Below are positions 19,201-28,847 of a stretch of DNA of 64,000 nt, one piece after another. The stretch's first letter is position 1. Each line of letters opens with the position of its first letter. The translations under genes were made by a program, and so were the position numbers. Where the stretch lies: NCBI RefSeq assembly GCF_017301635.1, contig NZ_CP071091.1:1331001-1395000 (forward strand), given 5' to 3'. The notes beneath the pieces were generated by a model, which saw only the letters and a list, made by a program, of their open reading frames with translations, had not been told where the DNA came from and ran no database searches. Source of the DNA: Myxococcus landrumus. GTDB taxonomy: Bacteria; Myxococcota; Myxococcia; Myxococcales; Myxococcaceae.

Positions 19201-22200
19201 ACAGTGTCATCGCGGGGCGCCTCGCCTATCTGCTGGACCTGCGGGGACCTGCGCTGACGGTGGACACGGCGTGCTCGTCGTCGATGGTGGCGTTGCACCT
19301 GGCCTGCCAGAGCCTGCGCAACCGGGAGTGCGACGCGGCGCTCGCGGGGGGCGTCAACCTGGTGCTTTCCGACAGGCCGGGCCTCTGGCTCTCCAAGCTG
19401 TCCGCGCTCTCTCCGGATGGCCGTTGCCGAGCCTTCGACGCGGGAGCCAACGGCTTCGTGCGCGGCGAGGGCTGCGGTGCGGTGGTGCTCAAGCGCCTCT
19501 CGGATGCGATGGCGGGGGGCGACAACATCCTCGCGGTCATCCGTGCGACGGCGGTGAATCAGGACGGTGGTTCGAACGGGCTGACCGCGCCCAACGTGCT
19601 CGCGCAGCAGGCGCTCATCCGCGAGGCACTGGCCTCGGCGCGGCTGTCACCCTCGGACATTGGCTACATCGAGGCCCATGGCACGGGGACGCCGCTCGGT
19701 GACCCGATAGAGACGGAGGCGCTGCGCGCGACGTACGGCAAGGCGCGGCCGGAGGGCACTCATTGCTACCTGGGGTCGGTGAAGACGAACCTGGGCCACC
19801 TGGAGTCCGCGGCGGCGATGGCGGGGCTCATCAAGACGGTGCTGGCCTTGCGGCACCAGGCCATCCCGAAGCATCTGCACTTCAAGGCGCTCAACCCGCG
19901 CATCTCGCTGGAGGGCACGCCCTTCGTCATCCCGACGCAGCTTCAACCGTGGCCGGTGTCCGAGCGGCGTCGCTACGCGGCCGTGAGCTCGTTCGGCATG
20001 AGCGGGACGAACGCACACGCCATCCTCGAAGAGGCGCCGCCCGTACTCACCTCGACCGCGAGTGTTGAAACGCGCACGCCAATCGGGATGTCACCGGCCC
20101 TTGCCGCTTCGGGTTCGGATGTGGAGGTCTCGCAGCCACTCGTCCTGTCCGCGAGAAGCGAGGCCGCGTTGAGGGCCTCCGCGGGGGCGTATCGCGAGTT
20201 CCTGTTGGATGAGCGCAGTGCGTCCCTCTCTCTTCAGGACATCGCCTTCACCGCGGCGCAGCGGCGAGGTCAGCATGAGCACCGGCTGGCGGTCGCGGGG
20301 CGCTCCCGGTCCGAGCTTGCCGAGCAACTGCGCGTCTATCTCGAGGGCGGTGTGGCCGCGCAGCTCACGGCGGGTGTCGTCCCGCGCAAGCCGGGCAGGG
20401 TGGCCTTCGTCTTCAGTGGGCAAGGGACGCAATGGAAGGGGATGGGGCGCGAGCTGCTCGCCCAGGATCCGGCGTTCGCGGCAGCGCTGAGGGAGTGCGA
20501 CTCGCTGTTGGCTCCGCACACGGGCTTCTCCATCGTGGAGGCCCTGGAGGCGGAAGACGGTGCGTCGCGGCTTGATGAGACGCAGGTGGCGCAGCCCGCC
20601 ATCTTCGCCATCCAGGTCGCGCTCGCGGCGATGTGGCGTTCCCTCGGGGTCGTCCCCGAGGCCGTCGTGGGTCACAGCGTCGGAGAGATTGCCGCCGCGC
20701 ACGTCGCGGGAGCGCTGAGTCTCGCGGAGGCGGCGCGCCTCGTGGCGCACCGGGGTCGCCTGATGCAGCGAGTGACGGGCCATGGGCGGATGGCCGCCGT
20801 CGAGATCACCCGGGAAGAGGCCCAGGCGGAGATCGCCCGCTTCGGGGAGCGGCTCTCGGTCGGAGCCATCAACGACACGCGCTCGGTCGTTCTCTCGGGA
20901 GAACCCGCCGCGCTCGCCGAGGTGCTCCAGTCGCTCAAGGCGCGAGGTGTCTCCACTCGGGACCTTGGCGTCGACTACGCGTTCCACAGTCACCAGATGG
21001 TGCCGCTCCAGGCCGAGCTGAAGGCGCTGCTCGGTACGCTGGAGACACGGCAGCCCTCCCTCCCGCTGTTCTCCACGGTCACGGGTGCCCTCGTCGAAGG
21101 TCGCACGCTCGACGCGGAATACTGGGCGAGCAACATGCGCGAGGCCGTGCGCTTCGCGGATGCAACGAACGCCCTGCTCGATGAGGGCTACCGCCTCTTC
21201 GTGGAGCTCGGACCGCAGCCCGCGCTTGGTCGCTACGTCTCCCAGGCCCTCTCGCGCCGCACCCTGGAGGGCACCGCGCTCTCGTCCATGCGCAAGGGGC
21301 GCGATGGCCGCACGGTGGTCCTCGGTGCGCTGGGCGGGCTCCATGCATGGGGCATCCCCGTCGACTGGGCGCGTGTGTTCCCCTCGGGTGGGCGAGTCGT
21401 CTCGCTCCCCGCGTACCCGTGGCAGCGCGCACGGTACTGGGTTGACCTCGGCGACTTCGCGATGACGGCGCGCTCCCTGGCGCAGGAGGCAGACTCCGCG
21501 AAGGGCCCGAACGCTGGGGTGTCCGCCTCGCCTGAGCTCGTCTACGACGTGTCCTGGCAAGTGAAGGCCCGAGGTGGTGCCGTCGCGCGGACGGCTCAGG
21601 GCGCTGGAGCCTGGGTCATCTTCGGCCACCGCGATGGAATCGGCGTCTCGCTGAAGACGCTGCTCCAGGCACGTGGCGAGCCGTGCTGGCTCGTGGTCCC
21701 CGGGACCGAGGCCTCGTCGAGCGACGACGTGCGCACGCTCGACCCGCGCGACCCCGAGCAATACGAGAAGCTGCTCCGCGAGCTTGGCGAGCTCCGGGGG
21801 GTGGTGCACCTCTGGGGGGCGGGAGAGCCCGCCTCGGAGGACCCGTCACTCACGGACCTCGAGGCCTCACAGGCGCAAGGTGTCCACTCAGCCGTGCACC
21901 TCGCGCAGGCGCTGCTGCGGCTTGGCGTGCCAGGCGCGCGCCTCTGGCTGGGCACGCGGGGAAGCCAGGCCGTGGCGGGGGCCGCGAGCCGCTCGCCGGT
22001 CCATGCACCGCTGTGGGGCCTGGGACGTGTTCTCGCGCTGGAGCACCCGGAGCTGTGGGGCGGGCTCGTGGACCTCGAGCCCGGCGCTCCCACGAGTGAG
22101 GCCGAGGTGCTGTGGGGCGAATTGTCCGGCTCCGATGGCGAGGACCAGGTCGCGTTCCGGGGCGGTGTCCGCCATGTCGCGCGCCTCGTCCCGTCGGCTC

Positions 22201-28200: not shown

Positions 28201-28847
28201 TCGCCGCTCGCTTCCGGACGCAGGGCATCGAGACATTCACGCCGGTGGAGGGACTCAAGGCCCTCTGGCGTGCGCTCAGCTTCGACAAGCCCCAGCTCAC
28301 GCTGATGCGAGTCGACTGGTCGCGCTACCTCTCGCAGCTCCCTCCGGGAGCGATGTCCTCGTTGTTCTCGGAGCTGGCCGCTCGGGAAGGCGCTCCGTCC
28401 TCGGTGGACCCAGGGGCGTCGCAGAAGCTGCGTCGCCAGTTGGAGGCCGCGGCGCCACGACAGCGGCTGTCGATCCTCATGGAGAGCGTGAGGGCCGAGG
28501 CCATCAAGGTGCTGGGCCTGGACCCGACGTTCCCGCTGGAGCCTCGTCAGCGACTGTTCGAGGCCGGGCTGGACTCGTTGATGGCGCTGGAGTTGCGCAA
28601 CCGCCTGCAAGGAGGCGTGGGCGCGGCGCTGCCGTCGACGCTGGTGTTCGACTACCCCAGCGTGGAGGCGATCACGACGTACCTGCTCCGCGAGGTCCTC
28701 CACCTGGAGGAGCAACAGACGGGCGGAGTGGAGGAAGCGAAGGCGGAGGAAGCCGCCCTCGTCGAGAAGATCATGGACCTGTCGCCGGATGAGCTCGCCG
28801 CGTCGCTCGACGCGAAGCTCGCGGCCCTGATGGAAGAAATCGGATGA
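13242..28847 (+). CDS. mxaC: Type I polyketide synthase, three modules (myxalamid modules 4-6)
   Basis: A 5201-residue giant PKS, 3 bp after the previous stop. Module one (~36-1790) is KS-AT-DH-KR-ACP: the AT motif reads VPSH near 751 in a methylmalonyl-like AT (GHSMGEV), the DH is intact ([24 protein letters not shown]), and the KR has IAD in place of LDD and no Trp, so B-type. Module two (~1846-3345) is KS-AT-KR-ACP with no DH: AT GHSVGE/YAFH near 2579, probably malonyl; KR A-type (no LDD, Trp eight residues before Tyr). Module three (~3385-5130) is KS-AT-DH-KR-ACP: AT HAFH near 4102 (malonyl), DH with [10 protein letters not shown] and VDSFLQ but a divergent [10 protein letters not shown] segment, KR B-type (LDD near 4891). 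All three KS triads are intact. By colinearity the modules build C8=C9 (E), C6=C7 (Z) and C4=C5 (E) of a myxalamid polyene; module two lacks the dehydratase its bond needs. Confidence 0.93.

What the first reader, a model, noticed from the sequence alone, without database searches (positions are those of the whole stretch)
20404..28847. Module 5 has no DH although its position needs a (Z) double bond; module 6 DH may dehydrate twice
The second module of the three-module PKS goes straight from AT to KR, with an A-type KR that leaves an L-hydroxyl. A myxalamid-type product needs C6=C7 in Z form. The next module's DH has divergent motifs ([10 protein letters not shown] in place of YGPxF) and could perform a normal plus a vinylogous dehydration, giving the 4E,6Z diene. 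Dual-function DHs of this kind are known from some other PKS lines.
Basis: partly seen in the sequence, partly recalled or inferred. Interest (0 to 1): 0.8.

Follow-up and report, generated by a model that had tools for sequence, protein, structure and literature searches.

The report
Double-dehydrating bimodule in phenalamide-type synthase
In this myxobacterial assembly line one module lacks its own dehydratase, and the dehydratase of the next module, a relative of one reported elsewhere to remove two waters, very likely does both jobs; comparison with related genomes adds a candidate extra catalytic histidine to test.

Summary
In the 5201-aa PKS (13242-28847) the middle module is KS-AT-KR-ACP with an A-type KR and no DH; the next has a B-type KR and a DH reading [10 protein letters not shown] where YGPxF is usual.

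DH7's nearest solved relative is the curacin CurJ DH, reported to do sequential eliminations on 3,5-diols. With CurJ it falls in a DH clade that follows a DH-less, A-type-KR module in four myxobacterial cluster types (31 of 32 such pairs found; the sample was mostly chosen by DH7 similarity). Module 4 is an internal contrast: after an A-type KR it has an ordinary DH, and that hydroxyl is kept (recalled). No dehydratase family was seen in 25 neighbouring ORFs scanned.

His4319 plus Ser4500 mark the clade better (30 of 31 against 1 of 101, picked post hoc). Dual dehydration is known elsewhere; the Z geometry is not shown here.

The parts
13242..28847 (+). three-module PKS gene (M5, M6, M7), 5201 aa
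   Evidence: translation; Pfam
16017..16940 (+). DH of M5, canonical (DYGPSF)
18774..20030 (+). KS of M6 (DH-less module)
20400..21317 (+). AT of M6 (GHSVG, YAFH)
22203..22889 (+). KR of M6, A-type (Trp3153, no LDD); predicted L-3-hydroxyl at the future C7
   Evidence: motifs; KR tree
23097..23312 (+). ACP of M6
23391..24665 (+). KS of M7; Cys with both His motifs (STACSS, EAHGTGT, KTNIGH), so predicted elongating
   Evidence: sequence
24975..25883 (+). AT of M7 (GHSVG, HAFH, malonyl type)
26067..26990 (+). DH of M7, proposed dual-function dehydratase
26157..26159 (+). His4306, catalytic His of HxxxGxxxxP; invariant in alignment A1
26196..26198 (+). His4319, clade-marking His in PGSCHISR; proposed second acid/base (inference)
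26535..26564 (+). [10 protein letters not shown] in place of YGPxF
26664..26666 (+). Asp4475, catalytic Asp ([10 protein letters not shown])
26739..26741 (+). Ser4500, clade-marking Ser in VPISLG
27612..28250 (+). KR of M7, B-type (GVLDDGV); predicted D-3-hydroxyl
28455..28670 (+). ACP of M7
4838..5773 (+). degenerate DH of M3 (YESPL; His and Asp present)
6389..7039 (+). A-type KR of M3 (internal contrast)
10449..11351 (+). ordinary DH of M4 (FGPSF), outside the DH7 clade
28844..35302 (+). M8 PKS gene with ordinary DH and a degenerate ER remnant
35161..39834 (+). NRPS C-A-T-reductase (chain release)

Best explanation
M6 and M7 act as a cis-AT dehydrating bimodule. M6 extends with malonate and its A-type KR leaves an L-3-hydroxyl (future C7). 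The undehydrated chain is passed to KS7 and extended, and B-type KR7 makes a 3,5-diol of predicted 3R,5S configuration. DH7 first removes the 3-hydroxyl (C4=C5, E), then removes the gamma hydrogen and the 5-hydroxyl through a vinylogous enolate, giving C6=C7, predicted Z. Shown here by sequence: domain order, KR types by motif and tree, intact catalytic residues, conservation, DH phylogeny, and no dehydratase family in the neighbouring ORFs scanned. Inferred: substrate, order of the two eliminations, double-bond geometry, and the residues that do the second elimination.
For: M6 lacks a DH and M7 has one. Nearest PDB sequence to DH7 is CurJ DH (3kg8, 1.1e-46, 162 bits; 7tzl 117, CurF 90, CurK 79); the ordinary DH4 hits CurK (155) and CurF (147) before CurJ (124). 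A 2025 paper states that CurJ and CurH DHs catalyse sequential eliminations of 3,5-diols and that a gladiolin DH makes an E,Z diene (PMC12828468, passages; gladiolin also PMC10921412, passage). The 30 of 125 annotated DH rows that follow an A-type KR without DH (29 with the module in view, L056 cut), and own DH7, lie in one clade with CurJ; their own KR reads B-type in 27 of 30 (L056 and L086 unread, L071 misread by the script, LED). Clade support 95/93 with long rows, 88/92 without. KS7 does not group with the KSs of the other bimodules (quick tree). M3/M4 contrast in the window and in 2 of 2 orthologous loci fetched for it (L128, L129).
Against: No biochemistry. CurJ is reported to give E,E, not E,Z, and an older review counts CurJ among unimodular proteins with an A-type KR that make cis bonds (PMC3962154, passage), so the analogy is imperfect. 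The extra His of the gladiolin DH is absent from that position in DH7 (Leu). The loci behind one search were mostly chosen by similarity to DH7; a later search seeded with KR6 instead found one A-type-KR-only module followed by an ordinary DH in a DH-ER-KR module (L121), and three followed by a module without DH (L110, L111, L113), so the pairing is 31 of 32, not universal. Two long-branch rows inside the 95/93 clade do not follow a KR-only module: L099 follows an AMP-ligase/ACP loading unit, L100 a module without KR. CurH, also reported as vinylogous, is distant (42 bits), so the activity is not confined to this clade. A new phenalamide is assigned all-E.
Confidence: 0.8

Rival explanations
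1. DH7 reaches back and dehydrates the L-3-hydroxyacyl chain while it is still on ACP6, before KS7 extends it, giving the Z-enoyl directly; no vinylogous step.
For: Syn elimination from an A-type alcohol is the proposed route to a cis bond (PMC5331325, PMC6264292, passages). A DH acting at long range is in print as a title (iso-migrastatin, reference list only).
Against: In L077 the DH-less module and the DH lie on separate proteins, where reaching back is harder, though not excluded. CurJ, the nearest solved relative, is reported to act on 3,5-diols.
Confidence: 0.12
2. Another dehydratase makes the C6=C7 bond: DH5 or DH8 of the same line, or an enzyme encoded elsewhere.
For: Own genome holds 21 PS-DH places, 14 of them outside this cluster.
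Against: No dehydratase family in 25 neighbouring ORFs that I chose and scanned, though six of them matched no Pfam family at 1e-5 and one; DH5 and DH8 are ordinary and lie outside the DH7 clade. Not every ORF was scanned, and no genome-wide MaoC or FabZ search was made.
Confidence: 0.05
3. DH7 does both eliminations but gives 4E,6E; the 6Z form arises later by isomerisation (light, handling or another enzyme). This overlaps with the best explanation and differs only in geometry.
For: CurJ reported to give E,E; an all-E tetraene is assigned in a new M. stipitatus phenalamide; 6Z in phenalamide A1 and myxalamids is recalled, not seen here.
Against: The upstream KR is A-type in all 31 pairs with a clade DH, the configuration proposed for a cis bond; E,E would not need it.
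Confidence: 0.2

Closest known systems
CurJ dehydratase (curacin PKS), PDB 3kg8
   Same: nearest solved sequence; LGQSFRW motif, His and Ser at the 4319 and 4500 columns; reported sequential eliminations on 3,5-diols
   Different: reported E,E product; cyanobacterial; that CurI lacks a DH is recalled, not checked; Fiers et al. 2016 not held
Gladiolin module-13 DH variant (Hobson et al. 2022, not held)
   Same: a beta-hydroxy module, then a module whose DH-like domain converts the dihydroxy thioester to an E,Z diene (PMC10921412 passage)
   Different: trans-AT; its extra His is, by my reading of PMC12828468, at the YGP Tyr position, where DH7 has Leu
Type B dehydrating bimodules of trans-AT PKSs (PMC8456789, two of three parts of the text read)
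   Same: two elongating modules, one DH, two eliminations, 2E,4Z diene; that paper says such bimodules usually contain A-type KRs
   Different: trans-AT and split across proteins; here cis-AT and in one polypeptide
Epothilone modules 4/5 (Tang et al. 2004, seen only in reference lists and citing sentences)
   Same: myxobacterial cis-AT case where a later DH is credited with a cis bond (recalled)
   Different: not compared by sequence here
Myxalamid PKS of Stigmatella (Silakowski et al. 2001, not held)
   Same: same bimodule; 14 of 19 orthologous genomes lack a close E2-ACP gene and fit this type
   Different: loading and first extension differ from the window's cluster (recalled for myxalamid)

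Membership tests
CurJ-like dual-function DH | closest sequence relationship to CurJ among solved DHs | tested here: met
   162 bits against 117 for 7tzl, 90 CurF, 79 CurK
CurJ-like dual-function DH | same clade as CurJ | tested here: met
   95/93 with long rows, 88/92 (not starred) without; moderate
CurJ-like dual-function DH | two sequential eliminations in vitro | not testable with these tools
   needs assay
Type B dehydrating bimodule | KS-KR-ACP module without DH followed by an elongating DH module | tested here: met
   KS7 Cys-His-His motifs
Type B dehydrating bimodule | trans-AT architecture, split proteins | tested here: not met
   AT domains present in M6 and M7, one ORF
Gladiolin-type diene DH | additional His at the YGP Tyr position | tested here: not met
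   Leu in DH7; Leu 13 and Phe 1 of 14 dereplicated clade rows; position inferred from PMC12828468
Phenalamide cluster | E1 alpha, E1 beta, E2-ACP, eight PKS modules, reducing NRPS | tested here: met
   E1_dh, Transket_pyr/Transketolase_C, 2-oxoacid_dh with PP-binding; modules; the feature list is recalled from Park et al. 2016
Phenalamide cluster | product isolated from this strain | not testable with these tools
   strain unnamed

The most novel reading that the evidence does not exclude
cis-AT lines have their own solution to diene formation: a DH clade (myxalamid/phenalamide, three further myxobacterial cluster types, and CurJ) in which a position that is mostly Tyr or Met in other DHs is a second conserved His (4319), paired with Ser4500, the His acting as the base for the gamma-deprotonation. 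This would be convergent with, but placed differently from, the extra His of the gladiolin DH, and would let diene-forming bimodules be predicted from sequence.
Probability: 0.35. Interest if true: 0.75.

Novelty: new member of a known kind. Interest (0 to 1): 0.5.

Why it matters
The product of this line needs a double bond where its module has no DH; the comparison points to one domain and two residues to test. If right, the His/Ser signature behind an A-type KR-only module would predict conjugated dienes in uncharacterised clusters, such as L086 (AMP-ligase-ACP loading, then the bimodule, then an NRPS), while pairs without it, such as L121, would be predicted to keep the hydroxyl.

Tried and rejected
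Leu for Tyr in YGP as the mark of dual function: rejected as specific, since 8 of 8 sister rows and 5 of 38 others also have it. His in LGHGF as the catalytic extra His: rejected, since it is Pro, Glu, Ser, Ala or Gln in 10 of 14 clade rows. KS grouping as evidence for transfer of a hydroxyl chain: uninformative. 'An A-type KR-only module is always followed by a clade DH': rejected by L121. Plasmid search: only distant hits, 31% identity at best. The A1 profile on 73 genomes (G122-G194, which earlier searches had also covered in part or whole): 3 with matches at 1e-25. CurH letters could not be obtained. Literature: 10 searches; in the listings and passages I saw, none discusses the missing DH of myxalamid or phenalamide. 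The library is open-access only, and Silakowski 2001, Fiers 2016, Zhang 2017, Hobson 2022 and Yin and Dickschat 2021 are not held, so it may well be in print.

Rows dropped before counts: one search leaves out L001-L009 and the short L010-L039 loci; one search leaves out the L090, L096 and L097 rows and thins at 86% identity (131 to 83); one search drops ten long-branch rows (own DH3 among them; own DH2, also long, was kept) and thins DH5/DH8 copies, leaving 60. His4319 and Ser4500 were picked from 14 columns that passed a clade-against-others filter on the same rows, so the counts are not an independent test. The 20 regions are a hand-picked part of the list, which is itself capped.

Full report
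What is there. The window lies at 1331001-1395000 of a 10.37 Mb single-contig genome. The cluster begins about 14 kb upstream (L001): E1-type dehydrogenase genes at L001:5016-6155 and 6152-7129, an E2-ACP fusion at 7129-8907 (Pfam), and M1 at 8904-15446 (KS-AT-DH-ER-KR-ACP). M2 crosses the window edge; M3, M4, the three-module gene, M8 and a C-A-T-reductase NRPS follow. This matches the phenalamide cluster of Myxococcus stipitatus as I recall it from Park et al. 2016. A close E2-ACP relative (81-100% identity; in two pieces in G108) lies in 5 of 19 genomes with an orthologous DH7; the other 14 have none or only E2 hits of 37-40%.

The gap. M6 (18774-23312) is KS-AT-KR-ACP. About 296 residues separate AT and KR, 293-307 in 17 orthologous loci, with no DH detected. 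KR6 and KR3 are the only KRs of the eight with the A-type Trp and no LDD-like motif. M7 carries DH7 and a B-type KR. Counting back from the release end, M6 sets C6-C7. A conjugated 2,4,6,8 tetraene is reported for a new phenalamide of another M. stipitatus strain (PMC13148359, passages), so the C7 hydroxyl is lost in that class.

Conservation. DH7 orthologues at 66-100% identity are in 19 of 145 genomes of the order, at most 16 candidates being scored per genome. In 18 of 18 other loci an A-type KR precedes DH7, 17 with the complete DH-less module visible.

Other clusters. Ten loci of a second cluster type (L061, L062, L063, L068-L073, L075), plus L077 and L086, have the same order: A-type KR without DH, then a DH and KR. 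In L071, L072, L073, L075 and L077 no AT was detected in the DH module. Of 125 annotated DH rows, 29 follow an A-type KR-only module and one (L056) an A-type KR at a contig end. The rest: 32 follow a DH module with B-type KR, 3 a DH module with unread KR, 1 a KR-only B-type module (L093), 9 a KR whose module is cut (5 B, 4 unread), 4 a module without KR, and 46 have no upstream module in view.

Bias and a counter-search. Those loci were mostly fetched for similarity to DH7. The own genome was the one sample not chosen so: 10 of its 14 PS-DH places outside the cluster were fetched, and no further A-type KR-only / DH pair was seen, though several upstream modules were unreadable. I then searched with KR6 (60 of 142 genomes at 1e-35), fetched 20 regions and annotated them. 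New A-type KR-only modules: L110, L111, L113 (next module without DH) and L121 (next module DH-ER-KR with an ordinary DH: Tyr at column 4319, FGPAF). So 31 of 32 A-type KR-only / DH pairs found have a clade DH. M3/M4 orthologues L128 and L129 show the window's contrast again: degenerate DH with A-type KR, then a DH reading FGPSF.

Phylogeny. The careful tree of 83 rows puts DH7, the second family, L077, L086 and CurJ together at 95/93, with two long rows, L099 and L100, that do not follow a KR-only module. Without long rows the 14 form one side of a branch at 88/92, not starred. KS7 falls in a group of ten (97, quick tree) with KS8 and KSs of L064, L083, L092 and L095, not with KSs of the other bimodules; second-family KSs group with the next KS of their own line. 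So inheritance of whole modules does not explain the DH grouping. The A-type KRs group together (93, quick tree). L121 was not added to the trees.

Residues. His4319 is His in 31 of 31 DHs of pairs with the clade DH, and in 11 of 101 others (Tyr 52, Met 26), seven of the 11 in the sister group (L058, L059, L060, L065, L066, L076, L087). His4319 with Ser4500: 30 of 31 against 1 of 101; with Leu4435 as well, 29 of 31 against 0 of 101. CurJ has all three. Rows are related and the columns were chosen on the same rows, so these are descriptions, not tests.

Internal contrast. M3 has an A-type KR and a degenerate DH (YESPL, with His and Asp present), and M4 an ordinary DH (FGPSF). The 13-hydroxyl is retained in phenalamides (recalled). 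M6/M7 has the same KR type but a clade DH, and its hydroxyl is lost. The contrast is imperfect: M3 and M4 substrates also carry methyl branches.

Mechanism and rivals. B-type KR7 and A-type KR6 predict a 3R,5S-diol on ACP7, the kind of substrate reported for the gladiolin DH (passages; the 3R,5S detail is recalled). I favour two eliminations by DH7. Action on the ACP6-bound chain, another dehydratase, and an E,E product with later isomerisation remain open.

Novelty. Dual dehydration by a modular PKS DH is known. [quoted passage not shown] I rate it a new member of a known kind.

Noticed in passing
window 42469-61796 (-): A myxochelin-type siderophore cluster lies directly downstream: aminotransferase, MFS, ExbD, TonB receptor parts, NRPS with reductase, isochorismatase-ACP, AMP ligase, chorismate-binding enzyme, SDR (the name is recalled).
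   Followed up: partly
window 33218-33991: M8 carries a degenerate ER remnant: 72 and 15 bits in two pieces to a one-sequence model of the M1 ER, whose self-match is 741.
   Followed up: no
window AT of M5, gene-E residues 649 and 750: AT5 has GHSMG and VPSH, a methylmalonyl-like pattern at a position without a methyl in the recalled product; VPSH in 17 of 17 orthologous loci read.
   Followed up: partly
window KS of M7: KS7 and its 18 orthologues read have Ser or Asn for Asp before TACSS; the 12 KSs of the other A-type-KR bimodules keep Asp.
   Followed up: partly
L086:3463-16638: AMP-ligase-ACP loading, then the same bimodule, then an NRPS: a dienoyl lipopeptide is predicted.
   Followed up: partly
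L077: Bimodule split over two proteins beside an IucA/IucC siderophore synthetase gene.
   Followed up: no
L121 (G098:C632): A-type KR-only module followed by a DH-ER-KR module with an ordinary DH; whether it removes two waters is unknown.
   Followed up: no
L083 and L093: DH modules that follow KR-only or cut modules with B-type KR, outside the clade.
   Followed up: no
window 39964-41370: 469-aa ORF after the NRPS with no Pfam match at 1e-5.
   Followed up: no
L001:274-1713 and 1861-2676 (-): A cytochrome P450 and a putative 2OG-Fe(II) oxygenase upstream of the E1 genes.
   Followed up: no
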